From contig NZ_FOYT01000001.1 of the NCBI RefSeq assembly GCF_900112175.1, forward strand, positions 310,001-374,000: a DNA stretch of 64,000 nucleotides. Reading direction: 5' to 3'. A program made the position numbers and the translations under genes. Of this stretch, positions 5,728 through 53,952 are shown in pieces. Under the pieces are notes generated by a model, which ran no database searches, was not told where the DNA came from, and was given only the letters and a program-made list of their open reading frames with translations. The stretch is from Halogeometricum rufum (GTDB lineage Archaea > Halobacteriota > Halobacteria > Halobacteriales > Haloferacaceae). Positions within the stretch are counted from its first letter, which is position 1. Every line of letters starts with the position of its first letter.

Positions 5728-7101
5728 ATGGACGCTATCTCCTTCGGGACCGACGGCTGGCGCGCGACGCTGGACACGTTCACGGACGACCGGGTCCGAA
5801 TCGTGGGACAGGCCGTCGCCGACTATCTCGCAGACGAGGGGTTCGACGCGCCCGTCTTCGTCGGCTACGACGCGCGGGACACCTCGCTCGGGTTCGCCGA
5901 GTCGCTGGCGGAGGTGCTGTCGGGCAACGGCTTCGACGTCCTCCTGCCGGACCGCGACCGACCGACGCCGCTCGTCGCCTACGCCATCGCCGACCGCGGC
6001 CTCTCGGGCGCGTTGATGGTGACGGCGTCGCACAACCCGCCGGAGTACAACGGCGTGAAGTTCATCCCCTCGGACGGCGCGCCCGCCCTCCCCGAGGTGA
6101 CGGAGGCCATCGAGGAACGCCTCGCCGAACCCGACCTGCTCCCCGAGTCCGAACACGGGACCGTCGAGGAGGTGGACATCGTCACGCCGCACTTCGAGCA
6201 CGCCCGCGAACTGGTGGACGCCGACCTCTCGGGACTCACCGTCGTCTACGACGCCATGCACGGGTCGGGGCGCGGCGTCACCGACGCCCTCCTCGAATCG
6301 GCGGGCGCCGAGGTCATCAGCATCCGCGGGGACCGCGACCCCGAGTTCGGCGGGTCGCCGCCGGAACCGAGCGCCGAGAACCTCGAACAGTTGGTCGAAC
6401 GGGTCCGCGAGGAGGACGCGGACCTCGGCGTCGCCAACGACGGCGACTCCGACCGGGTGGCGTTCGTCACGCCCGAACGCGGCCACCTCGACGAGAACCT
6501 GTTCTTCGCCGCCGCGTACGACTACCTCCTCGCCGACGACAGCGGTCCGGCCATCCGCACCGTCTCGACGACGTTCCTCATCGACCGCATCGCCGAGGCG
6601 CACGGCGAGGAGGTGTTCGAGACGGCTGTCGGCTTCAAGTGGGTCGCCGACGCGATGAAGGAACACGACGCGCTGATGGGCGGCGAGGAGTCCGGCGGCT
6701 TCTCCATCCGCGGGCACGTCCGCGAGAAGGACGGCGTCCTGATGGGACTGCTCGGCGCGGCCGCGGCCGTCGCCGAACCGATGGACGAACGCGTGGACCG
6801 ACTCCTCGACACCCACGGCGACATCGTCGCCGACAAGATTAGCCTCGACTGCCCCGACGCCGAGAAACAGCGCGTCATCGACGAACTGGACGACGAACTC
6901 CCCGAACAGGTCGCGGGACGGGACATCGAGAAAGTCGTCACCCTCGACGGCTTCAAACTCCTGCTGGAAGACGGGTCGTGGCTCCTCGCCCGCCCCTCGG
7001 GGACGGAGCCGAAGATGCGCGTCTACGCCGAGGCGTCCAGCGAGGAGGCCGTCCGCGAACTCCTCGACGCGGGCCGCGAACTGGTCGCGCCGCTCATCTG
7101 A
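5728..7101 (+). CDS. Phosphoglucomutase/phosphomannomutase (alpha-D-phosphohexomutase)
   Basis: A 457-aa alpha-D-phosphohexomutase. The catalytic phosphoserine is Ser101 in TASHNPPEYNG, the metal loop is GDSDR at about 239-243, the sugar-binding GEESGG lies near 318, and the C-terminal phosphate site is RPSGTEPKMR near 424. It interconverts hexose 1- and 6-phosphates for glycan and nucleotide-sugar synthesis; glucose, mannose or glucosamine specificity cannot be decided from sequence. The C-terminal end overlaps the convergent GNAT gene by 8 bp. Confidence 0.93.
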   Translation: MDAISFGTDGWRATLDTFTDDRVRIVGQAVADYLADEGFDAPVFVGYDARDTSLGFAESLAEVLSGNGFDVLLPDRDRPTPLVAYAIADRGLSGALMVTASHNPPEYNGVKFIPSDGAPALPEVTEAIEERLAEPDLLPESEHGTVEEVDIVTPHFEHARELVDADLSGLTVVYDAMHGSGRGVTDALLESAGAEVISIRGDRDPEFGGSPPEPSAENLEQLVERVREEDADLGVANDGDSDRVAFVTPERGHLDENLFFAAAYDYLLADDSGPAIRTVSTTFLIDRIAEAHGEEVFETAVGFKWVADAMKEHDALMGGEESGGFSIRGHVREKDGVLMGLLGAAAAVAEPMDERVDRLLDTHGDIVADKISLDCPDAEKQRVIDELDDELPEQVAGRDIEKVVTLDGFKLLLEDGSWLLARPSGTEPKMRVYAEASSEEAVRELLDAGRELVAPLI

Positions 7102-7552
7102 GGACGCCGCGGAACCGGTCGCCGTCGGTCGGGGGGTCGTCGTCTCGGCCGTCGCCGCCGTTGCCCTCGCCACCACCGCCGCCGTCGACGTTCGCCCCCT
7201 CCGTAGCGGGCGCTATCTCGAACCCGAGCGACTCGTAGAACGGCCGGACCTGCCGCCGAAACGTGGCCGTCAGCGGTCCGTTCGTCTCCGTCGCGGCCGC
7301 CGCGACCAGTCGCCGGCCGATGCCCCGCGCCCGTCGAGAGCGATGCACCGCTATCTGGGCTATCTCCGTCGCCGCGCCCCGGTCGGCGAGGACGCAGACG
7401 CCGACGACGCGGCCGTCAGCCTCGGCGACGAGGACGCCCTCGCGGCCGATTCGGTCGCGGACGCGGTCGGCGTCGACTTCGAGCATCGCGGCGTCGAGCA
7501 GTTCGACGGCGCGTCCGTGGTCGTCGGGGCGGGCACGACGTATCTCGGTCAC
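7094..7552 (-). CDS. GNAT family N-acetyltransferase
   Basis: A 152-aa acetyltransferase with a GTG start. The acetyl-CoA pyrophosphate loop is [10 protein letters not shown] after strand IAQIAVH, and FYESLGFEI is the typical C-terminal motif. After the fold ends near residue 115 there is an unusual Gly/Asp-rich tail. It lies 9 bp downstream of samp2 on the same strand and is probably cotranscribed; whether it acetylates a SAMP-pathway protein is unknown. Confidence 0.9.
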
Positions 7553-7561
7553 GCCGCCGCC

Positions 7562-7768
7562 TCACTCGGCGCCGCCCTTGATGAGGCGGAGAATCTTCAC
7601 CCGGTCGGTCGCGACGGGTTGGTCCTCGGGGACGGGCGACCCGTCGACGAGGACGGACACCTCGTGGGGGCTGAGGTCCACCGCCCGAATCAGGTCGGCG
7701 TACGTGTCGTCGTCGCCGACGCTGACCTCGCGGGTGTCCTCGCCGACGACTTCGACGGTGACGTGCAT
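7562..7768 (-). CDS. samp2: Ubiquitin-like small archaeal modifier protein 2
   Basis: A 68-aa beta-grasp protein of the MoaD/ThiS/ubiquitin type, close to Haloferax SAMP2 as I remember it (shared [15 protein letters not shown] and [10 protein letters not shown] segments, and a neighbouring rfcA). SAMP2 is adenylated by the E1-like UbaA and either joined to protein lysines or used as sulfur carrier for tRNA thiolation. Oddity: the protein ends IKGGAE, two residues past the diglycine, so activation would need removal of Ala-Glu. It is divergent from rfcA and leads the GNAT gene. Confidence 0.9.
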
Positions 7769-7862
7769 GGCCGCCTCTCCGCCCGCCGCGGGTTTCTCGG
7801 TTTCGCTCCGGTCGGCGGCGCAACGCGGGTGCTTTATCACCCGCCGGGACCGTGTGCAGCGT

Positions 7863-8849
7863 ATGAGCGAGGCCGCGGACGCGGAGGACGCCCCCACGGG
7901 TCGCGAGATATGGATCGAGAAGTACCGACCGCAGACGCTGGACGACGTGTACGGGCAGGAGGACATCGTCGACAGACTCCGCTCGTACATCGAACAGGAC
8001 GACCTGCCGCACCTGCTGTTCGCGGGCCCGGCGGGCGTCGGCAAGACCACCTCCGCGACGGCCATCGCCCGCGCCATCTACGGCGACGACTGGCGCGGCA
8101 ACTTCCTCGAACTCAACGCCTCGGACGAACGCGGCATCGACGTGGTGCGCGACCGAATCAAGAACTTCGCGCGCTCGTCGTTCGGCGGCTTCGACTACCG
8201 CGTCATCTTCCTCGACGAGGCGGACTCTCTCACCTCGGACGCGCAGTCGGCCCTGCGCCGGACGATGGAGCAGTTCTCCGACAACACGCGCTTCATCCTC
8301 TCGTGTAACTACTCCTCGAAGATAATCGACCCCATCCAGTCGCGGTGTGCGGTGTTCCGCTTCTCGCCCCTCGGCGACGACGCCGTGGCCGAACAGGTGC
8401 GCGACATCGCCGCGGCCGAGGACATCGAACTCACCGAGGACGGACTCGACGCCCTCGTCTACGCCGCCGGCGGCGACATGCGCCGCGCCATCAACTCCCT
8501 GCAGGCGGCGGCGACGACGGGCGAGGTGGTGGACGAAGAGGCCGTCTACCTCATCACCTCGACGGCCCGCCCCGAGGACATCGAGGCGATGGTCCAGTCG
8601 GCCATCGACGGCGACTTCCTCGCCGCCCGGTCGAAACTGGAGACGCTCCTCGTCGACACCGGGATGGCCGGCGGCGACATCATCGACCAACTGCACCGGT
8701 CGGTGTGGGACTTCGACCTGGACGAACGCACGACGGTCCGCCTGATGGAGCGCATCGGCGAGGCGGACTACCGCATCACCGAGGGGGCGAACGAGCAGGT
8801 GCAACTGGAGGCGTTGCTCGCGTCGTTGGCCGCCGCGACCGACGAGTAA
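7863..8849 (+). CDS. rfcA: Replication factor C small subunit
   Basis: A 328-aa clamp-loader ATPase that opens and loads [18 protein letters not shown] starts the AAA+ core, Walker A is [11 protein letters not shown] near residue 54, Walker B is FLDEADSL near 117, sensor 1 is SCNYSSKI, and the SRC motif with the arginine finger is SRCAVFRF. The collar domain follows. Many haloarchaeal rfcA genes carry inteins; this one has none at the usual Walker A position. Confidence 0.96.
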
Positions 8850-8858
8850 CGAGTCGGT

Positions 8859-11255
8859 TCAGTCGGCTCGGAACTCGAACCGCGCGCCGCCGTCGGCGCT
8901 CTCGGTCACCGACACGTCCCAGTCGTGCGCCTCCGCGATGCGCGAGACGATGGTGAGACCGTAGCCGATGCCGTCGCCGCCGGTGGTCTCGCCGGGGTCG
9001 AACACCGACTCGCGGCGGTCCTCGTCGATGCCGGGGCCGTCGTCTTCGACGTAGAACCCCCGCTCGCCGTCCAGCGGACCGACGCGAATCGTGACGCCGC
9101 CGCTCGTGTCGCCGTGTTCGACGGCGTCGTCGGCCGCCGGCCGACTGCTCGCGGAGCCATGCTCCACGCTGTCACCGGACGACGTCCGGTTGCTCGTGGA
9201 ACTGTGTTCCACGGTGTCTCCGGGAGGGGAGCGACCGGAGGGACGTCGAGCGCCGTGCTCGACCGAGTTCCGAAACAGGTTCCCGAGCAGTTCGGCCAGA
9301 CGCTCGTCGTCGGCCTCGACCGTCGCGGTGGCGCTCTCCAGCGTCGCGTCTTCGGTCTCGACGGTGTCCCACGCCCGACGGGCGACCGCCGCCACGTCCA
9401 CGGGGGTCGTCTCGCCGACGACTTCGCCCTGCCGCGCCAGCGACAGCAGGTCGTCGATGAGCCGTTCCATCTTGTTCAACGCGTCCGCCACCGCTTCGAA
9501 CGACTCCTCGCGGTCCGTCTCGCGTGCCAGTTCGAGGTGTCCCTGCGCCACCGCGAGGGGGTTCCGCAGGTCGTGGCTCACGATGTTGGCGAACTCCTCC
9601 AACCGCTGGTTCTGCCGTCTCAGCTCCGACTCGCGCTCTTTCCGCTCGGTGATGTCGGTGTAGAGCGCGTACCCCACGCCGTCGGCGGCGTCGGGGTCGA
9701 GTGGGACGACGTTGAGGATGAACTCGCGCCGGTCGCCGTTCGCGAGTCGCTGCACCTCGCAGCGCCGTCGCTCTCCCGCCGCGACGCTCAACTCCGGGGG
9801 GTCCGTCTCGTCGTCGGGGACGATTTCGGCGACGAGGTCCTCGCCGATGACGTCCACGCTGCACCGGCCGAACCGCTCCTCGAAGGCGTGATTGACGCTC
9901 TGGACGGACGCGACGCCCGCGCCCTCGTCCACCTGATAGGCGACGGCGGCGTCGGAGACGTGTTCGAACAGGGCGGTCGAGCGGTCGCGTTCCTCGCGGA
10001 GGTCCTCCTCGGCGCGGATTCGCTCGGCGGTCACGGCGACGTGCGCCATCAGGAGTTCGGTGAGTTCCGCGTCCGTCTCGTCGAACGCGTGCGGCGTGTA
10101 CGCGGCGGCCTGAAACACCGCGAAGTCGCCGATTGGGACGCTCAGCCCCGACCGATAGGTGTCCTTCGCCGGTTCGGCGTCGTCGGCCTCGGCCATGTCC
10201 GTGACGAGACGCGTCTCCTGCGTTCGGTAGACGGCGGCGGCGACGCCGCCGTCTTCGAGCGACTTGACCTCCGCGCCGTCCTCGGGGAACCCCTCTGACA
10301 TCGCGGCAGGGACGATGAAGCCGTCGTCGACGACGCCGACGTAGCTCAGGTCGAACGAGAGAATCTCGTCGGTGACCGCGACGGTTCGCTCGAACAGTTC
10401 GTCGATGTCGGTGACGGCGGCGAGTTCGACCGTGCCGCGGTGGAGCGCTTCGACGCGACTGCGACTCTCTCGAAGCGCCGCCTCGGACTCGATTCGGGCC
10501 GCCGTCTCGGCGACGTAGGAGACGAGCAGTTCCGCGAGGCGGCGGTCCGTCTCGTCGAACGCGTTCACGTCCGTCGAGATGGCCTGAAACACCCCGACGT
10601 CGCCGATGGGCACGCTGACGACCGACCGGAACCCCGGGTCGGCGGGGTCGGCCACGTCGCTGTCTCGGACGTCGTCGAGGCGGAACGATTCGCCCGTCCG
10701 GTACGTCTCACCGACGAGTCCCCTGTCGTAGTCGATGCGGTCGTCGTCGTCGAAGTCGTCGTCGGTGGCGCGGACGTGGAAGCCGTCGCCGGCGTCGGTG
10801 CAGACGACGGAGTTGTCGAACGCGAGGATGCGGTCGGCGATGTCGAGCGTCTGGTCCAACAGTTCGTCGGTCGTCTCGGCCGAGATGAGTCTCGAACTCC
10901 CCTCGTAGAGCCGTCTGAGCCTCGTCTCGTGGACCGCCACGCCGTCGGCCCGCGCCGCGAGCCAGCGGAGTTGCGTGCGGAGCGATTCCTCGTCGCCCCG
11001 TCGCACGAACGCGTCGAACCGCTCCGGTCGAGGCACCGACGCCGGGTCGCAGTCGGCGTAGCAGACGACCGGCACGTCGCGTTCGAAGTCGCTCGACGGG
11101 TCGGTGACGATGGCGACGTCTGCCGGTTCGCCGTCGCCGGCCGGCACGAAGGACGCCGAATCGGACACCAGCGTAAGATGCTCCATTGCCGCCGGGTCGT
11201 CCACGGCGAGTCGCAGTTGCTCCAGTCCTCGCACGTCAGTCTGGCTAGGGAACAT
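8859..11255 (-). CDS. Sensor histidine kinase with GAF-GAF-PAS architecture
   Basis: A 798-aa soluble kinase without membrane segments. Order: an N-terminal receiver-like segment (about 1-105), GAF 1 (about 115-265), GAF 2 (about 280-420), PAS (about 435-550), HisKA with His561 in IVSHDLRNPL, and HATPase with N-box NLFRNSVEHG, G1 DDGPGI and G2 GDGIGYGLTIV. The two GAF domains share PIGD-VFQA repeats, so they are internal duplicates. Between N-box and G1 lies a low-complexity insert with four VEH(G/S) repeats. Convergent with rfcA. Signal unknown; no response regulator gene is adjacent, as is common in haloarchaea. Confidence 0.93.
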   Translation of the reverse strand: MFPSQTDVRGLEQLRLAVDDPAAMEHLTLVSDSASFVPAGDGEPADVAIVTDPSSDFERDVPVVCYADCDPASVPRPERFDAFVRRGDEESLRTQLRWLAARADGVAVHETRLRRLYEGSSRLISAETTDELLDQTLDIADRILAFDNSVVCTDAGDGFHVRATDDDFDDDDRIDYDRGLVGETYRTGESFRLDDVRDSDVADPADPGFRSVVSVPIGDVGVFQAISTDVNAFDETDRRLAELLVSYVAETAARIESEAALRESRSRVEALHRGTVELAAVTDIDELFERTVAVTDEILSFDLSYVGVVDDGFIVPAAMSEGFPEDGAEVKSLEDGGVAAAVYRTQETRLVTDMAEADDAEPAKDTYRSGLSVPIGDFAVFQAAAYTPHAFDETDAELTELLMAHVAVTAERIRAEEDLREERDRSTALFEHVSDAAVAYQVDEGAGVASVQSVNHAFEERFGRCSVDVIGEDLVAEIVPDDETDPPELSVAAGERRRCEVQRLANGDRREFILNVVPLDPDAADGVGYALYTDITERKERESELRRQNQRLEEFANIVSHDLRNPLAVAQGHLELARETDREESFEAVADALNKMERLIDDLLSLARQGEVVGETTPVDVAAVARRAWDTVETEDATLESATATVEADDERLAELLGNLFRNSVEHGARRPSGRSPPGDTVEHSSTSNRTSSGDSVEHGSASSRPAADDAVEHGDTSGGVTIRVGPLDGERGFYVEDDGPGIDEDRRESVFDPGETTGGDGIGYGLTIVSRIAEAHDWDVSVTESADGGARFEFRAD

Positions 11256-11315
11256 TCAGGATTCACATAACTGTTGCGGCGCGTTCGTCCGGAACGCGGT
11301 GTGATACCTCACGAT

Positions 11316-11804
11316 TTAGTTCAACACCCAGAACCGATAGTTGAGCGCCGTCGCGAACGCCACCCAGGCGAGGTACGGGAGCATGAGTGCCGCGGCCCGC
11401 CGGTCGATGCGGCCGAACAGGGCGGTGACGGCGACGATGGCGAGGAGGAGGGGGACGATGACGACGAGGCCGTACAGCGGCGACTGCAGGCCGAAGAACG
11501 CCAGGGACCACGCCACGTTGAGGACGAGGTGGCCGAGGAATGCGTACAGGGCGACGCGGGCCCGCGGGTGCGAGGACCGGGAGACGAGGAACGCCGCCGT
11601 CCCCATCAGGGCGTACAGCGTCGTCCACACCGGACCGAACACCCAGTTCGGCGGCGCGAACGCCGGTTGGACGAGCGTCTGATACCACGTCCCGATGGCC
11701 GACGCCGTCGCCACGCCGCCGACGACGCCCGCAAGTTCGGAGAGCAGTACCCACGCCACCCACTCGACCGCGGGGCGTCGCCGGAGGGACTCGCGTAGTT
11801 CCAT
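11316..11804 (-). CDS. tspO: TspO/MBR family tryptophan-rich sensory protein
   Basis: A 162-aa membrane protein with five predicted helices. The family signature lies after helix 1: WYQTLVQPAFAPPNWVFGPVW, and the last helix ends LNYRFWVLN. TspO proteins bind porphyrins and regulate tetrapyrrole or carotenoid responses to oxygen and light. The ATG at 11804 is chosen because residues before it in the longer frame are Arg-rich and lack family similarity. Confidence 0.94.
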   Translation of the reverse strand: MELRESLRRRPAVEWVAWVLLSELAGVVGGVATASAIGTWYQTLVQPAFAPPNWVFGPVWTTLYALMGTAAFLVSRSSHPRARVALYAFLGHLVLNVAWSLAFFGLQSPLYGLVVIVPLLLAIVAVTALFGRIDRRAAALMLPYLAWVAFATALNYRFWVLN

Positions 11805-11962
11805 GCGCGAGAGTAGTCGGGCGACGACGTTAGCGGTGTCGGCGGCGGCCGCGCGTCGGACGCTCGTTTCCCGCCCGCGAGTGCGGAAACGATACCGAAA
11901 TCGTCGGTCCCCGTCCCGCACACCCGGAACTGTTTTACCCGGCCGTGGGTCAATCTGGGGTA

Positions 11963-14731
11963 ATGAGCGAACTCGAAGAGGAGTACCGCCTCGACTATTT
12001 CGAGGAGGAGGGGTTCTACCGGAAACAGTGCCCGGTGACCGACGCGTACTTCTGGACGCGGGACCCCGACCGCGAGACGTGTGGGGAACCGCCGGCGGAC
12101 GACTACTCGTTCATCGACAACCCCGGTTTCGACGAGGAGTACACCCTCGAAGAGATGCGAGAGGAGTTCCTCTCGTTCTTCGAGGAACACGGCCACGAAC
12201 GCATCGAACCGTACCCGGTCGCGGCCAACCGCTGGCGTGACGACGTGCTCTTGACGCAGGCGTCTATCTACGACTTCCAACCGCTCGTCACCAGCGGACA
12301 GACGCCGCCGCCGGCGAACCCGCTCACCATCTCGCAGCCCTGCATCCGGATGCAGGACATCGACAACGTGGGGAAGACGGGCCGGCACACGATGGCGTTC
12401 GAGATGATGGCCCACCACGCGTTCAACGCCCGCGAGGAGGTCGGCGACGAGTACGCCTACTCCGGCGAAGTCTACTGGAAGGACGAGACGGTCGAACTCT
12501 GCGACGAGTTCTTCGAGCACATGGGCGCGGACCTCGAAGAGATAACGTACATCGAGGACCCGTGGGTCGGCGGCGGCAACGCCGGTCCCGCCTTCGAGGT
12601 ACTGTACCGCGGCGCCGAGTTGGCGACGCTCGTCTTCATGTCGATGGAGCAGGACCCCGACGGCGAGTACGAGATGAAGGACGGCAACCGGTACTCGCCG
12701 ATGGACACCTACATCGTCGACACCGGCTACGGCCTCGAACGCTGGGCGTGGGTGTCGCAGGGGACCGCCACCGTCTACGAGGCGGTGTACCCGGACATGA
12801 TCGAGTTCCTGAAGGAGAACGCCAACCTCACCCTCACCGACGACGAGGAGGAACTCGTCCACCGCGCCGCGAAACTGTCGGGCTACCTCGACATCGACGA
12901 GGTGGACGACGTGTACGAGGCGCGCGTCGACATCGCCGACCAGTTGGGCGTCGACGCCGACGAACTGACGGCCCTGCTCCGCCCCCTCGAAGACATCTAC
13001 GCCATCGCCGACCACTGCCGGACGCTCGCGTACATGTTCGGCGACGGCATCGTCCCCTCGAACGTCGGGACGGGCTACCTCGCGCGCATGGTCCTCCGTC
13101 GGACGAAGCGCCTCGTCGACAACGTGGGCGTCGACGCCCCTCTCGACGAACTCGTGGACATGCAGGCCGAACGCCTCGGCTACGAGAACCGCGACACCAT
13201 CCGCGACATCGTGCGGACCGAGGAGCGGAAGTACCGCGAGACGCTCGAACGCGGGACGCGGAAGGTCGAGACGCTCGCCGACGACTACGCCGGCCGCGAC
13301 GAGCCAATCCCGGTCGAGGAACTCATCGAACTGTACGACTCCCACGGCATCCAACCCGACATGGTCGAGGAGATAGCCGAAGAGCGCGGTGCGCGGGTGG
13401 ACGTGCCGGACGACTTCTACTCGCTGGTCGCCGACCGACACGAGGGCGAAGGGGCCGCCGAGGCGGCCGAGGAACGCGAGGACCGCCTCTCTGACCTGCC
13501 CGACACGGAGAAGCTCTACTACGACGACCAGGAGCGGACCGAGTTCGAGGCCGTCGTCCTCGACGTCCTCGAACGCGAGGCGGGCTACGACGTCGTCCTC
13601 GACCAGACGATGTTCTACCCCGAGGGCGGCGGGCAACCGGCCGACCACGGGACGCTCTCGACGGACGACACGACGGTGCAGGTGACGGACGTGCAGATAC
13701 GCGACGGCGTCGTCCTGCACCGGACTGACGAGGACCCCGGCAAGGGCGAGTTCGTCCGCGGGCAACTCGACGTGGAGCGTCGCCGCCGCCTGATGCGGCA
13801 CCACACGGCGACGCACGTCGTCGGCTACGCGGCCCGACAGGTGCTCGGCGACCACGTGCGACAGGCCGGGGCACAGAAGGGCACCGACCGCGCCCGCTTC
13901 GACATCACCCACTACGAGCGAATCACGCGCGAGGAGGTCAAGCGGATAGAGCAGGTGGCCAACGACGTCGTGATGCGGAACGTCCCGGTGAAACAGGAGT
14001 GGCCGGACCGCCACGAAGCGGAGGAGCGGTACGGGTTCGACCTCTATCAGGGCGGCATCCCGCCGGGACAGAACATCCGCGTCATCTCCGTCGGCGACGA
14101 CGTGCAGGCCTGCGGCGGGACGCACGTCAAGCGGACCGGCGACATCGGCGCCATCAAGGTGCTGACGACCGAACCGGTGCAGGACGGCATCGAACGCGTC
14201 GTCTTCGCCGCGGGCGACGCGGCCATCGAGGCGACGCAGCGCACCGAAGACGCCCTCTACGACGCGGCCGAGGTGCTCGACGTGAACCCCGAGGACGTGC
14301 CGGACACGGCCGAGCGGTTCTTCACCGAGTGGAAGGAACGCGGCAAGACCATCGACCGGCTGAAGTCCGAACTCGCGGAGGCGCGCGCCGCCGCGGAGAC
14401 GGAGGAGACGGACGTGAACGGCACGCCCGCCGTCGTCCAACGACTCGACGGCGACGCCGACGAACTCCGCGCGACGGCCAACGCCATCGTCGGAGAGGGC
14501 AAAGTGGCCGTCCTCGGCTCCGCCGCGGGCGGCAGCGCCCAGTTCGTCGTCGGCGTCCCCGACGGCGTGGGCATCAACGCGGGCGAAGTCGTCGGCCAAC
14601 TCGCCTCGCGCGTCGGCGGCGGCGGCGGCGGCCCGCCGGACTTCGCGCAGGGCGGCGGTCCGAACGTCGACGCTCTGGACGACGTGCTGGCGGAGGCGCC
14701 CGACGTGCTCCGGCAGGTTCTCGACGCCTGA
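11963..14731 (+). CDS. alaS: Alanyl-tRNA synthetase (archaeal type)
   Basis: A 922-aa archaeal AlaRS, with the extra N-terminal region seen in archaea before the class II catalytic core ([33 protein letters not shown]). The editing domain has zinc ligands HHTATH near 612 and CGGTH near 716, and the DHHA1-like C-terminus has [16 protein letters not shown] and a Gly-rich run. It charges tRNA-Ala and clears Ser/Gly mischarging. Start ATG at 11963 follows TAA and matches the family N-terminus. Confidence 0.97.
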
Positions 14732-48706: not shown

Positions 48707-49048
48707 TCAGGGCAGGCGCGCCCGAATCGCCGCGCGGTACTCCGCGTCGGTGTAGCCGAGTCGCGAGAGCCACACGTCCTGATAGGAGGGGTGAAGCAGG
48801 GGCAGAAGCGTCACGTCGAACGCGTCGAGGGCGACCGGTTCCAGCACCGAGTCGAGGAAGCCGTCGAGTTCCCGGCCGTCGAACGCGAGCATCGTCGCCG
48901 TCGCGTGCTTTCCGGTCGAGACCACCACCTCGGGGTCGACTTCGGCCACCTCGGTTTCGAGGTGGCTCCGGCAGTTCGCGCGTTCGGCCGCCGTCGGTTC
49001 GCGGTTCGACCCCGCGCCGTCGCACGGGAAGCACTTCACCGGTTCGTG
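48707..49048 (-). pseudogene. C-terminal fragment of uracil-DNA glycosylase
   Basis: About 110 codons of a family 4/5 UDG: VKCFPCDGAGSNREPT with two cluster-type Cys, ERANCRSHL with another, and motif HPS in LLPLLHPSYQD. The N-terminal half is missing; the fragment begins abruptly at AT-rich DNA. The matching N-terminal half lies on the same strand at 53630-53952, so the gene was split by the insertion between them. One base also seems missing near 49041 (ACGAACCGG), so the frame would not be restored by simple excision. Confidence 0.88.
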
Positions 49049-49422
49049 AAATTAATCACATCTATAATTTTTATATGTATTAGATAGACTGGAAGTACGG
49101 GTGTTAGTAGCACAATCCAGCAGAGCCAACACCAGTCGGCATTCCAGTTGAGACTTTCATAATTTGGTTGCCGTTCCAAAACTAGCCGCGAGTTCAGATA
49201 GATGTGTTCGTGAGAGTCCTCTCGGGACTCTAAGCGAGACTAGACGGCTGACTCTGTTCATATCGGTAAAGCGACTTTGGATAGTACGCAGAACGTACTA
49301 ATCATATTGAATACTCTAATCTGTATACCGTCACAGAGGGAATACACCACCCTCCTCACTAGAACTTGTCATCGGTGTTCAAAGATAGATTTATGTTATT
49401 TTAATGGTTTTTCCGACTTATC
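49049..49422. other. AT-rich non-coding left end of the insert
   Basis: No gene seen. Two perfect hairpins: AGAGTCC-TCTCG-GGACTCT at 49213-49231 and TAGTACG-CAGAA-CGTACTA at 49282-49300. A TATA-like TTTATGTTAT near 49390-49400 sits about 27 nt before the helicase GTG start. The hairpins could mark recombination, a small RNA, or regulation. Confidence 0.6.
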
Positions 49423-52353
49423 GTGACCAACGTCCTTGAAGCAGACATAGACTGGACAGACCCGCAACAGCGAGTCATCCAACACCAAGACGGCCCTCTC
49501 CAAGTTGCCGCATGCGCTGGATCTGGCAAGACCCACACAATCTCCGCCAGAATCGCCCACATGGTATCTAATGGGGTTCCACGAGACAATATCGTTGCGT
49601 TCACCTTTACTGAAAATGCCGCAGATGAACTAAAGGTGAGAATTCGTTACTGGATGGAACAGGCTGGCCTTGACGACGAAGGTCTCGGCGATATGTTCAT
49701 CGGCACTATCCATTCCTTCTGTCAGCAGTTACTACACGATCATCGAACAGAAACCCTCAGCTACGACATAATGGGAGAGAATGAACGACGAGCATTCATT
49801 CTCAACCACTTCTTTGACTTAGGACTTCACGAAATGAGTCCTTCCCACCCAGACAACACCTACAGGAAGGTGAAATGGTTCACTGAAGATCTCGATACTC
49901 TCCGTCGAGAGATGATTGTTGGAGAGGCAGATGCTTCTCAGGATAGTACTACCGAAGATCTCATGGAGGCTTATCACACCTATCAAGATATTCTTGACGA
50001 GTATCATTTCTTTGATCATCAGGAGCTCATCTATCGTGCCGTGCAAATGCTTTCTGAGGACGATGATGTACGAGAGAAAGTACAGGATCAATACCAGTAT
50101 CTGATCGTTGATGAATATCAAGACGTGAACAACATACAGGAACAATTAGTTCAGCTTCTCACCGGAGAGGACCAGAACCTGTGTGTTGTCGGAGATGATG
50201 ATCAATCCATCTATGGTTGGCGTGGAGCTCAACCCGCAAGCTTCATTAATTTCACAGAACGGTACGACGCAGAACAGGAAGTTCTAGCTGAAAACTTCCG
50301 GTCTACAGAACCAATAGTGGAACTCGCGCGGGAATTCATCGAGCAAAACGATAATCGTGTTGAAAAGCCGATGAATACCAATCATCCGGGGCAAGTAGGA
50401 GATATCTATCAACACTACTTCGACACTCAACAAGGTGAAATAGACTTCATCATGGATCGAATTGAAGAGGTAGTTGGAACTGTATATACTGATTCCGGAG
50501 GTAACGAACACACGGTTCGCTACGGCGATATTGGTATTCTGTTCCGTCGGAAGCGATTCATGGATGAGTTCCAAGACGCGATGAGAGACCGAGACATCCC
50601 CTATACTGTTCAGGGTGACAACGGGCTATTCGCACACCCTATCACTCACTTTGTACGTCTTGCATTCGGATATATTGCTAGAGGAGAAGATAACGGATTC
50701 GAGATAATAGATGGTGAACAGTCGAACGTTAACCAGGGAGACATCCAGACATTTGAGATAACTGAACGCCGGCTTCGAGGAGTCATTCGAAATACCGGGC
50801 CGCTACGAGACCGAGAAGACATCATTGTCGAGAAACTGAACGAAATCCAAGAATGGTACGCGGATCCCACGAGTAGGCGCATTGAACCTCAGGAGGAACT
50901 CCACAAAATCCTCCAAGCAATGGGCATTGCTAACGAAACAGAAGATAATGATGGAGTGAATGAAGGATTTGAGGAACCTGTGATGTACTCTCTCGGTCTC
51001 ATCAGTGAACTCATCAAAGACTTCGAATCTGTCTACGAAATCATCTTCCCCGATCAGATTACTGACTTAGTTCAATTCCTTGACCACGCCTACTTTTATG
51101 GTCGATCCGAAGTCGATGACCCCACGCTTGTTGATGCAGTTGATCTCTCTACTATCCATAATTCAAAGGGGAAGCAATACGCCGCGGTGTTCGTTCCTAC
51201 AATGTTCATCTACGGATTTGCAAATGAGAATCAAGGAGGAACTCGGGCATTTATGCGAGGTCAGGAGTGGATTGATGAAGACATATTCGATTACGAGAAC
51301 TACCAAGATACCAACGAAGGACTCCGCCGTTTATTCTATGTTGCTCTCACCCGTGCTGAAAAATACCTCACAATCACTGGTGCATCTGATAATCCAGGCT
51401 ACGAGAATAACTACTCTCCATCACAGTTCTACAACGAATTACTAAGTCTTGATCATCCTTCTGTTTTAACAGACACTGTCCCAGACCCTGCGCCACGAGA
51501 ACGTCAGGAATTACAAGAAGCGGGGAGAGACATCGTCTACCCCACCTCGTTTAGTGATCTTCGGTACTATCAGAAGTGCCCGTACGACTACAAACTGCGT
51601 CAAGTCTACGGGTTCGCTCCACCAATTGACCAAGCATTCGGCTTTGGATTTGCAGTGCACGATCTCCTTCGAGAGATGCATCAGCGACATACTGAGGATA
51701 ACAACGAATTTCCCATCTCTCCAGGAGAAATCCGAAACCGAGTCCAAGACTCCGACAGATTCCACCTACGGTATGCATCGGGGCAAATTGATGAAAATCT
51801 CCGTGAGGCCGCTGAAGAGATGCTTACCAACTACGCAGAGAACTATCGAGAAGACATGATAAGTGCATACCGTGCAGAAGTCCCATTCGAGATCTTGGTC
51901 GGGGATGAAAACGAACAAGGGGCAACAGCACTGGTCTCAGGCGAAATTGACCTATTGGAACACAAGAACCCTCACACCCAAGAAATCGAAGAAGTAGACA
52001 TCATTGATTTCAAAACGAGTGAACGGCCCGAAGATAACAGCCCTGATGCCCGAGACAATGCGTTCCAAGTCCACCTATACGGTGTCGCTACCAGGAGCGA
52101 CTTTAATCCTGATGCGACAGAGGGATACATTCACTATTTAAACCACGACCCAGAAGATGATGGGACCCTCGGTGAAAACAACGAAGAACGCGTCCCAGTT
52201 GATCTGTCCGAAACTGATCTTGACCGCGTTCAGATGTTGGTAGAGGATAGAGTTAATGAGATCGCTCAACGGCGATTCTTCCCGGACCCTGATGAAGAGA
52301 AATGTGAAACCTGCGACTTCAATGGAATTTGCCCCCACGCAGAAACCGAATAG
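49423..52353 (+). CDS. UvrD-like SF1 helicase fused to RecB/Cas4-type Fe-S nuclease
   Basis: A 976-aa protein. Helicase: Q-motif TDPQQR, Walker A ACAGSGKTHT (Lys36), DEYQD at 230-234, GDDDQSIYGWRGA near 256-269, STIHNSKGKQ near 576-585, LTRAEK near 642-647. Nuclease (about 700-976): metal residues in SGEIDLLEH (Asp843) and DIIDFKTSE (Asp862, Lys864), Cys719 plus Cys961, 964, 970 (Cx2Cx5C), the AddB/Cas4 4Fe-4S pattern. Acts on DNA ends or foreign DNA. GTG start; convergent with the methyltransferase. Confidence 0.93.
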   Translation: MTNVLEADIDWTDPQQRVIQHQDGPLQVAACAGSGKTHTISARIAHMVSNGVPRDNIVAFTFTENAADELKVRIRYWMEQAGLDDEGLGDMFIGTIHSFCQQLLHDHRTETLSYDIMGENERRAFILNHFFDLGLHEMSPSHPDNTYRKVKWFTEDLDTLRREMIVGEADASQDSTTEDLMEAYHTYQDILDEYHFFDHQELIYRAVQMLSEDDDVREKVQDQYQYLIVDEYQDVNNIQEQLVQLLTGEDQNLCVVGDDDQSIYGWRGAQPASFINFTERYDAEQEVLAENFRSTEPIVELAREFIEQNDNRVEKPMNTNHPGQVGDIYQHYFDTQQGEIDFIMDRIEEVVGTVYTDSGGNEHTVRYGDIGILFRRKRFMDEFQDAMRDRDIPYTVQGDNGLFAHPITHFVRLAFGYIARGEDNGFEIIDGEQSNVNQGDIQTFEITERRLRGVIRNTGPLRDREDIIVEKLNEIQEWYADPTSRRIEPQEELHKILQAMGIANETEDNDGVNEGFEEPVMYSLGLISELIKDFESVYEIIFPDQITDLVQFLDHAYFYGRSEVDDPTLVDAVDLSTIHNSKGKQYAAVFVPTMFIYGFANENQGGTRAFMRGQEWIDEDIFDYENYQDTNEGLRRLFYVALTRAEKYLTITGASDNPGYENNYSPSQFYNELLSLDHPSVLTDTVPDPAPRERQELQEAGRDIVYPTSFSDLRYYQKCPYDYKLRQVYGFAPPIDQAFGFGFAVHDLLREMHQRHTEDNNEFPISPGEIRNRVQDSDRFHLRYASGQIDENLREAAEEMLTNYAENYREDMISAYRAEVPFEILVGDENEQGATALVSGEIDLLEHKNPHTQEIEEVDIIDFKTSERPEDNSPDARDNAFQVHLYGVATRSDFNPDATEGYIHYLNHDPEDDGTLGENNEERVPVDLSETDLDRVQMLVEDRVNEIAQRRFFPDPDEEKCETCDFNGICPHAETE

Positions 52354-52365
52354 ATTGACCTAGAA

Positions 52366-53532
52366 TCACGCCTTAGCTGGGCGTTTTACGTGATCTTCCA
52401 GCTCATCTTGAGCAACGCGTTCTGGCCACGCAAATGGATCGTCCTCTTCCTCAGCTTCAACCCGAAGGCCGCCTTCCAATCCCTGTAGATGTGCTTCAAT
52501 CGCCCACCCTAGGTGATAAGCCAGCTTCGGTGGAACTGCGTTCCCAATCTGTTGGGCGACTCGCCACTGATGTTGTCGGCCCTGTATGGTGTAATCATCA
52601 GGTATTGTCTGGAGCCTCGCTCCCTCTCTGAGTGTTATCGCTCGGTTTTCAGAAGGATGCAAGTGACGTCCTTTCATCGGCTTATGAAAACCAGTTCGAA
52701 TCGTAACCGCAGGTTCGTCCATCCAGAGACGCCCAAATAGATCCGTACCGCCGCTTTCGTACCCTTTCCAGCACTCTGGAAGCAATTCTTCGGGAATATC
52801 AAATCGGTTTCCACCCTCAGGAACTGCTTCCATTCTCTTGATAGTTTTTTCCGAAAAGTTCCGAGTATTATGCCAGTTCTCGTTGTTTGGTTTCGTGGGT
52901 AAGTCAGCAATTGCGTCTCTTACCGTCCGTACAGGTTCTGAAGTCGTCGCAGGAAACACAGGTGTCCCTAGCCTACTCCCAATAATGAATGCTCGATGCC
53001 GTCGCTGCGGTACCCCATATTTGTGTGCCCATAGTCGGTCAACTACGGTGTTGTACCCCATCTCTTCCGCCTGAGCCACTACTTCCGATCCTTCTTTTGA
53101 GTCTAGAAACCGCGGGACGTTCTCAATTAAGAATAGGTCTGGTTGTATATCATTTACTGTTCGCATAAACTCTTCCCAGAGCTGGTTCCGATCGTCATCT
53201 AACTCATCAGTCTTTGTACTGTTGAGGTTTGAAAATCCCTGACATGGAGGGCCTCCAACGACGACGTCGGCATCGCTCCATTCTGTGAACGACTCAATTT
53301 GGGTGATATCTTCGTTAATCACCTCTGCGTCTGGGAAGTGATGCTCTACAGTAGCAGCTGCGTCTTCATTATTATCAACGGCTAATACTGTACGGAATCC
53401 ATTCCCAGGTGTCGTTAACCCCTCATATTTGAGGTCTCCTATTCCATTCAATCGATCAGGCTGCTCTAATCCAAGGGATAGTCCGCCAAGACCGCTAAAT
53501 AAATCAACAAGACGATGAGCCTCACCACTCAT
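52366..53532 (-). CDS. DNA (cytosine-5)-methyltransferase
   Basis: A 388-aa Dcm-type enzyme. Motif I LVDLFSGLGGLSLG, catalytic Cys97 in GGPPCQGFS (IV), ENVPRF (VI), QRRHR (VIII), and motifs IX/X with RLQTIPDDY and IGNAVPPKLA. The target-recognition region (about residues 235-290) lies between VIII and IX and is short. It modifies cytosine in an unknown site, with SAM. No restriction nuclease gene of the usual kind is adjacent; the helicase-nuclease may take that part. Confidence 0.95.
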   Translation of the reverse strand: MSGEAHRLVDLFSGLGGLSLGLEQPDRLNGIGDLKYEGLTTPGNGFRTVLAVDNNEDAAATVEHHFPDAEVINEDITQIESFTEWSDADVVVGGPPCQGFSNLNSTKTDELDDDRNQLWEEFMRTVNDIQPDLFLIENVPRFLDSKEGSEVVAQAEEMGYNTVVDRLWAHKYGVPQRRHRAFIIGSRLGTPVFPATTSEPVRTVRDAIADLPTKPNNENWHNTRNFSEKTIKRMEAVPEGGNRFDIPEELLPECWKGYESGGTDLFGRLWMDEPAVTIRTGFHKPMKGRHLHPSENRAITLREGARLQTIPDDYTIQGRQHQWRVAQQIGNAVPPKLAYHLGWAIEAHLQGLEGGLRVEAEEEDDPFAWPERVAQDELEDHVKRPAKA

Positions 53533-53629
53533 GTCTTATATTGTTATATCGACTCAAGATTAAGTTTACGTATAGGAGTCATATTGGGGCTTAGATCCGT
53601 TGAGTAACCTGAAAACCACAGTTCAAACA

Positions 53630-53952
53630 GTGTAGTAGGCGTCCGGGTGCCCCACCGCGGCCAGGAGGCGGCGGACGCGTCTCCCCGAGTGCCGCGTCGT
53701 GTACGCCGCGCCCGTGTGGTTGCCGCCCCGCCACCGGTCGGCCCCCGGGTCGCCCGCGCCGGGCGCCTCGCCGACGACCATCACCGACGCGTCCCGCGGG
53801 CCGGTCCCCCACGAGATTTCGGTCCGACACGCGACGAGTTCGGGACACCGCGCGCAGTCGGCCTCGACGACGAACCGCTCTCCGAACGGCGTCTCCGCCT
53901 CGTCGCCGTCCGCGGAGCGACCCTGGGTGTTCTCGGTGTTCCGTTCGCTCAT
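53630..53952 (-). pseudogene. N-terminal fragment of uracil-DNA glycosylase
   Basis: About 107 codons: cluster Cys pair in CARCPELVACR, motif VVGEAPGAGDPGADRW (the GEAPG motif of family 4/5 UDG), then HSGRRVRRLLAAVG and DAYYT. The frame then meets a stop (TGA 53623-53625) inside the insert. Together with 48707-49048 it would make one UDG of normal length (about 215 residues) that removes uracil from DNA. Confidence 0.88.

What the first reader, a model, noticed from the sequence alone, without database searches (positions are those of the whole stretch)
49423..53532. Two-gene cassette: helicase-nuclease plus C5 methyltransferase as a candidate defence system
The insert has only a UvrD-like helicase fused to a Fe-S RecB/Cas4-type nuclease and a Dcm methyltransferase, convergent and 12 bp apart. 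Both catalytic sets are complete. A methyltransferase that marks self and a helicase-nuclease that destroys unmarked DNA would form a minimal restriction-like system different from the type I-III gene sets and from DISARM as I know them. Convergent order is unusual for such pairs.
Basis: partly seen in the sequence, partly recalled or inferred. Interest (0 to 1): 0.88.

Follow-up and report, generated by a model that had tools for sequence, protein, structure and literature searches.

The report
Helicase-nuclease replacing a restriction enzyme
A salt-loving archaeon carries a small inserted cassette in which a DNA-marking enzyme, whose close relatives travel with an ordinary restriction enzyme, is instead paired with a motor-driven DNA-shredding enzyme, which points to a minimal two-gene restriction-like defence that can be tested directly.

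Summary
A 4,581-bp insert (window 49049-53629, 47% GC in 70% GC DNA) splits a uracil-DNA-glycosylase gene that is whole in three same-genus relatives. It carries only two genes, convergent and 12 bp apart: a 976-aa UvrD helicase fused to a PD-(D/E)XK nuclease with four conserved cysteines, and a complete C5-cytosine methyltransferase.

The same convergent pair occurs in another haloarchaeal family. In an independent sample of three bacterial phyla, 5 of 9 relatives of the nuclease have a C5 methyltransferase adjacent or close by.

The best clue is partner exchange. The closest relatives of this methyltransferase (about 60% identity, target-recognition domain included) sit, also convergently, beside HNH endonucleases. 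Bacterial helicase-linked methyltransferases form a separate clade, so this pairing arose at least twice. The helicase-nuclease occupies the place of the restriction enzyme.

The general association is prior art: Hudaiberdiev et al. 2017 described UvrD-Cas4-like fusions beside Dcm (with or without Vsr) or type III genes and predicted an ancillary defence role. New here are the minimal two-gene form, the swap with HNH, the repeated origin and the precise insertion. Methylation, cleavage and defence are untested.

The parts
49049..53629 (.). Whole insert (4,581 bp, 46.9% GC) carrying only the two genes; no transposase, integrase or terminal inverted repeat seen
   Evidence: Compared with intact UDG genes of three same-genus genomes; GC and ends
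49046..49048 (.). GTG at the left edge; with 53630-53632 a 3-bp target duplication or microhomology
   Evidence: Junction alignment with L060-L062
53630..53632 (.). GTG at the right edge, second copy
49423..52353 (+). UvrD-like SF1 helicase fused to a PD-(D/E)XK (PF12705, Cas4/RecB-like) nuclease with four conserved cysteines, 976 aa
49519..49533 (+). Walker A GSGKT (residues 33-37)
50110..50124 (+). Helicase motif II DEYQD (residues 230-234)
51577..51579 (+). Cys719, first of the four conserved Fe-S-type cysteines (others 961, 964, 970)
   Evidence: Invariant in 12 relatives
52006..52014 (+). Nuclease DFK motif (D862, K864); D843 lies upstream in GEID
   Evidence: Invariant in 12 relatives
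52366..53532 (-). C5-cytosine DNA methyltransferase, 388 aa
53242..53244 (-). Catalytic Cys97 of GPPCQGF (motif IV)
52645..52962 (-). Target-recognition region (residues about 191-296), more alike to bacterial HNH-paired MTases than the catalytic part is
48707..49048 (-). 3' half of the disrupted uracil-DNA-glycosylase-family gene
53630..53952 (-). 5' half of the disrupted uracil-DNA-glycosylase-family gene

Best explanation
A mobile two-gene restriction-modification-like cassette. The C5 methyltransferase marks one sequence in the host genome (inferred from its complete motifs). The UvrD-PD-(D/E)XK protein is the restricting half: an ATP-driven helicase-nuclease that attacks DNA lacking the mark and degrades it processively (inferred). 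It has taken the place that an HNH endonuclease holds next to the nearest relatives of the methyltransferase. The most likely way of finding its target is through the methyltransferase bound at unmodified sites, by loose analogy with type I and type III complexes; this step is a guess. Shown: intact catalytic motifs, recurrence of the pair, exchange with HNH, at least two origins of the pairing, horizontal insertion. Not shown: methylation, cleavage, any defence.
For: Same convergent pair in G179, another family, 50% (helicase) and 57% (MTase) identity, about 4 bp apart. The nearest MTases lie convergently next to HNH endonucleases: G176 (L008/L057, gap 3 bp; the HNH scores best against PADLOC REase_II) and a Halorussus plasmid. 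MTase tree: window+G179 (95/95) beside G176+Halorussus (98/96); bacterial helicase-linked MTases are a separate clade (98/96); the tree forces at least two helicase pairings. TRD identity to HNH-paired Sphingomonas MTase 56% against 39% in the catalytic part; to bacterial helicase-linked MTases only 34-37%. No HNH relative elsewhere in G000 or G179. Independent sample of three phyla found by the nuclease alone: 5 of 9 have C5 MTases adjacent or within about 1.1 kb, including all five scoring above 220 bits; two more have N-MTase plus a large ATPase. C5 context clusters on the helicase tree (2 changes, shuffled mean 9.1). dN/dS 0.10 (helicase) and 0.025 (MTase) in one bacterial pair.
Against: No biochemical data. 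The helicase-nuclease shows no recognisable site-specific DNA-binding domain. Some relatives sit beside a conventional restriction enzyme (MspI family, MvaI/BcnI family), which fits an accessory role. A few relatives have no MTase nearby (L048, L084, L085). Only two haloarchaeal species with this exact pair were found among about 390 searched.
Confidence: 0.55

Rival explanations
1. Ancillary nuclease: the helicase-nuclease does not choose the target but chews up DNA already cut by a restriction enzyme encoded elsewhere, or processes ends as RecBCD/AddAB do; the MTase belongs to restriction-modification proper.
For: Proposed for this protein class in PMC5704561. Relatives sit beside MspI-family and MvaI/BcnI-family restriction enzymes or HNH genes. 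Fold nearest to UvrD, AddA and AdnB.
Against: The insert has no restriction enzyme gene and neither G000 nor G179 has a relative of the HNH partner; the helicase gene stands in the HNH position; many bacterial loci show only MTase plus helicase-nuclease.
Confidence: 0.2
2. Co-carriage without mechanism: the MTase protects the mobile cassette from host restriction, and the helicase-nuclease is an independent defence or repair factor.
For: The cassette is mobile; the G179 copy lies near integrase genes and a PCNA-like gene; solo MTases are common in haloarchaea (PMC6471742, PMC10609329).
Against: Repeated, at least twice independent, tight pairing of the same two families and exchange with HNH in the same slot.
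Confidence: 0.13
3. Repair of 5-methylcytosine damage: the helicase-nuclease works with Vsr-like mismatch repair to correct T/G mismatches at methylated sites.
For: Vsr genes accompany several related MTase loci (L090, Sphingomonas and Pandoraea plasmids, Priestia).
Against: No Vsr in this insert or directly beside the G179 pair; helicase-nuclease relatives also pair with N-methyltransferases, whose products do not deaminate to thymine.
Confidence: 0.07
4. Non-functional remnant left by a random insertion.
For: No mobility gene in the insert; a UDG gene was broken by it.
Against: 976- and 388-codon reading frames are open with every catalytic residue kept, in a composition unlike the host.
Confidence: 0.05

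Closest known systems
UvrD-Cas4-like (pfam12705) fusions in Dcm context (Hudaiberdiev et al. 2017, PMC5704561)
   Same: SF1 UvrD helicase fused to a PF12705 nuclease next to a C5 MTase; predicted defence role
   Different: Here only two genes, no Vsr, convergent; the MTase belongs to an HNH-paired lineage and not to the bacterial helicase-linked clade; exchange of partners seen
Type II restriction-modification with C5 MTase and HNH endonuclease (G176, Halorussus plasmid, Sphingomonas plasmid)
   Same: Same MTase lineage and similar target-recognition region, same convergent layout
   Different: The HNH endonuclease is replaced by an ATP-dependent helicase-nuclease
CglI / NgoAVII ATP-dependent restriction (PMC4267653)
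   Same: A methyltransferase system that needs a separate ATP-burning motor protein to cut DNA
   Different: There the DEAD-family ATPase and the site-specific nuclease are separate proteins; here SF1 helicase and nuclease are one chain and no site-specific nuclease is known
Hma (helicase, m5C methylase, ATPase; PMC8565338)
   Same: Helicase and m5C MTase side by side
   Different: Hma is a three-gene operon; no ATPase third gene here
Gabija (GajA/GajB)
   Same: UvrD-family helicase scores against GajB profiles
   Different: No GajA, extra nuclease domain, MTase present

Membership tests
UvrD-Cas4-like (pfam12705) fusion family | UvrD SF1 helicase fused to a PF12705 nuclease | tested here: met
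   Pfam hits over cut-off in one 976-aa chain
UvrD-Cas4-like (pfam12705) fusion family | Neighbouring Dcm-type MTase, or type III Mod/Res | tested here: met
   PF00145 gene 12 bp away
UvrD-Cas4-like (pfam12705) fusion family | One clade with the 2017 set of fusion proteins | not tested
Type II restriction-modification | Modification MTase of type II class | tested here: met
   Complete C5 MTase; PADLOC MTase_II 2e-88
Type II restriction-modification | Adjacent recognisable restriction endonuclease | tested here: not met
   Insert has only two genes; no relative of the HNH partner in the genome
Type II restriction-modification | Cleavage at or near one fixed site | not testable with these tools
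   Needs biochemistry
Type I / type III restriction-modification | HsdS specificity subunit, or N6/N4 Mod with SF2 Res | tested here: not met
   Two genes only: C5 MTase and SF1 helicase-nuclease
DISARM | DrmA/DrmB/DrmC with DrmMI or DrmMII | tested here: not met
   MTase scores weakly on DrmMII (3e-43); no other gene in the insert
Gabija | GajA OLD-family ATPase-nuclease beside GajB | tested here: not met
   Only GajB-like superfamily scores; no GajA gene in the insert
Druantia | DruE and companion genes with DruM | tested here: not met
   MTase scores on DruM (5.8e-95), no companion gene in the insert
Hma | Helicase, m5C methylase and ATPase in three genes | tested here: not met
   No third gene; no Hma model among the listed hits

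The most novel reading that the evidence does not exclude
A minimal class of ATP-dependent restriction-modification in which a free-standing C5 methyltransferase supplies all sequence specificity and a processive SF1 helicase-nuclease is the only restricting enzyme, and which arose at least twice, once by displacing an HNH restriction endonuclease.
Probability: 0.38. Interest if true: 0.85.

Novelty: new variant of a known kind. Interest (0 to 1): 0.62.

Why it matters
If the helicase-nuclease really replaces a conventional restriction enzyme, the same methyltransferase lineage exists with two quite different killers, a natural experiment on how modification is read by restriction. It would show that a processive repair-type motor can be put under the control of a single-subunit C5 methyltransferase, and it would give the predicted but untested UvrD-Cas4/Dcm systems a compact two-gene form for bench work in Haloferax.

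Tried and rejected
Sigma-70 promoter and terminator scan of the insert: no more than in shuffles, and not meaningful for archaea. No tRNA in the window. Terminal inverted repeats: none. PADLOC hits to GajB, DruM and DrmMII were rejected as superfamily cross-matches because the partner genes are absent. Phage records: only helicase-domain matches, none covering 80%. Close viral relatives of the pair: none; viral relatives of the helicase are 27-29% identical, and none of the 80 viral loci fetched by the MTase holds the helicase-nuclease. The recognition sequence could not be predicted; no solved MTase is close (best matches by sequence: cytosine MTase 3g7u, DNMT1, HaeIII). Co-divergence of helicase and MTase: Mantel r 0.66 overall (p 0.0008) but p 0.06 without near pairs, so weak. 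dN/dS between window and G179 is saturated. A first MTase tree with long branches was replaced by a better-sampled one.

Full report
What is there. The two genes are present at the stated coordinates, convergent with 12 bp between stop codons. The + strand gene encodes a UvrD/PcrA-type SF1 helicase (residues 12 to about 675) fused to a PD-(D/E)XK nuclease of the Cas4/RecB type (708-971). All catalytic residues, and four cysteines laid out as in Fe-S nucleases of this class (719, 961, 964, 970), are invariant in 12 relatives from archaea and bacteria. The AlphaFold2 model is good (pLDDT 80, pTM 0.83) and Foldseek places it with UvrD, AddA and AdnB. The - strand gene is a complete C5-cytosine methyltransferase.

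The insert. The cassette interrupts a uracil-DNA-glycosylase-superfamily gene: the two halves lie on the minus strand on either side. Three of four other genomes of the genus carry the gene whole (L060-L062), which fixes the insert at 49049-53629 with a GTG repeated at its ends, plus one base missing from the gene beside the left end. Its GC is 0.469 against 0.70 in the flanks. There is no transposase, integrase or terminal inverted repeat, so the way of insertion is unknown. The genome keeps three other genes of the UDG superfamily. The flanks read as housekeeping genes by inspection of the ORF translations (annotation by eye), so this is a two-gene insertion and not part of a defence island.

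Does the pair recur? Yes. Among 391 haloarchaeal genomes searched with the helicase, G179, of another family, has the same convergent pair (50% and 57% identity, about 4 bp apart). That copy is also AT-rich (0.445 against 0.59-0.63) and lies among integrase and PCNA-like genes, which suggests mobile DNA. In bacteria, relatives at 28-37% identity found by the helicase query lie next to C5 MTases in Acutalibacter, an Oscillospiraceae MAG, a Bacteroidetes MAG, a Pseudomonadales MAG, a Planctomycetota MAG and two (pro)viral contigs; others lie next to N-methyltransferases or type III-like genes. Two plasmid loci add a conventional restriction enzyme (MspI family; MvaI/BcnI family). To avoid choosing by context, I then searched samples of three bacterial phyla with the nuclease profile only: of 9 new hits, 5 have a C5 MTase adjacent or within about 1.1 kb, two have an N-MTase with a large ATPase, one sits on a 4-kb contig and one has a broken frame. 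All five that score above 220 bits are C5-linked (two of the five are near copies). With a few C5 MTases per genome of some thousands of genes, adjacency by chance would be well under 1% (estimate). The C5 context needs 2 changes on the helicase tree against 9.1 for shuffled labels. One bacterial pair shows purifying selection on both genes (dN/dS 0.10 and 0.025).

The partner exchange. By sequence the MTase of G176 (about 60% identity) is at least as close to the window's as the one in G179. In G176 the convergent neighbour, 3 bp away, is an HNH endonuclease, whose best PADLOC match is REase_II. A Halorussus caseinilyticus plasmid has the same MTase-HNH convergent pair (HNH 48% identical to that of G176). 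A Sphingomonas plasmid, and many viral contigs reached with the MTase, have MTase plus a related HNH gene. The IQ-TREE phylogeny gives window+G179 (95/95) beside G176+Halorussus (98/96), the four together 89/93, and a separate clade for the bacterial helicase-linked MTases (98/96); helicase pairing needs at least two origins. In the target-recognition region the window MTase is 56% identical to the HNH-paired Sphingomonas enzyme and 52% to the Pandoraea one, though only 39-40% in the catalytic part; against bacterial helicase-linked MTases the figure is 34-37%. The usual pattern is the reverse, so the target site is probably shared with HNH-type systems. Neither G000 nor G179 has a relative of that HNH enzyme elsewhere. 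The simplest reading is that the restricting half was exchanged while the modifying half and its target stayed. The direction (HNH first) rests on the many HNH-paired relatives; the tree is not rooted, so it is probable, not proven.

How it likely works. Shown: gene content, intact motifs, recurrence, exchange, mobility. Inferred: the MTase marks the genome; the helicase-nuclease, driven by ATP, degrades DNA without the mark. The weak point is recognition. The helicase-nuclease has no evident site-specific domain, so either the MTase at unmodified sites recruits it, or it acts on breaks or ends made by something else. The second possibility is the ancillary role proposed by Hudaiberdiev et al. 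and keeps a fifth of my belief.

What is known. PMC5704561 describes UvrD-Cas4-like fusions as a family in two contexts, type III restriction-modification and Dcm (with Vsr in several), and predicts that they belong to several defence systems in an ancillary role. I found no experimental test in the papers searched, but subscription papers and preprints are mostly outside that library. Two surveys of haloarchaeal and archaeal restriction-modification genes (PMC6471742, PMC10609329) contain no mention of UvrD or helicase in their main text. The known types I-III, DISARM, Gabija, Druantia and Hma each fail at least one defining feature here. CglI/NgoAVII (PMC4267653) is the nearest worked-out mechanism, with ATP-dependent restriction by a separate motor protein. 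I therefore call this a new variant of a known, predicted kind, whose new features are the two-gene minimum, the exchange with HNH, the repeated origin and the clean insertion.

Noticed in passing
window 48707-49048 and 53630-53952: A uracil-DNA-glycosylase-superfamily gene is split by the insert; three same-genus genomes have it whole, a fourth lacks a match, and three other UDG-superfamily genes remain in this genome.
   Followed up: yes
L172 (G000:C2:55000-74000), 6681-13491: A second methylation locus in the same genome: two C5 methyltransferases with an HhH-GPD DNA glycosylase gene between them and a DUF262-like gene (by eye), flanked by two similar three-gene sets that start with a 646/672-aa protein. 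L083 in Bacillota also has an HhH-GPD-like gene (by eye) beside its C5 MTase; possibly base-excision restriction.
   Followed up: partly
L058 8225-13030 and L054 7037-12052: A three-gene haloarchaeal cassette (N-methyltransferase, UvrD-nuclease about 29% identical to the window's, and a 391 to 463-aa protein; the 391-aa one has no Pfam match) in G353 and on a Haloferax lucentense plasmid.
   Followed up: partly
L081 883-11128 and L082 1095-10669: In two further haloarchaea a more distant UvrD-nuclease gene stands beside an approximately 1,865-aa Walker-A protein; in L081 the helicase-nuclease frame is split in two.
   Followed up: no
L043 261-7441: A helicase-nuclease gene in an Oscillospiraceae MAG is surrounded by three different C5 methyltransferase genes.
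   Followed up: no
L090 6636-12135, L091 6433-11978: In Bacteroidota the pair is extended by a Vsr gene upstream and an HNH_2 protein gene downstream (Pfam-checked in L090 only).
   Followed up: partly
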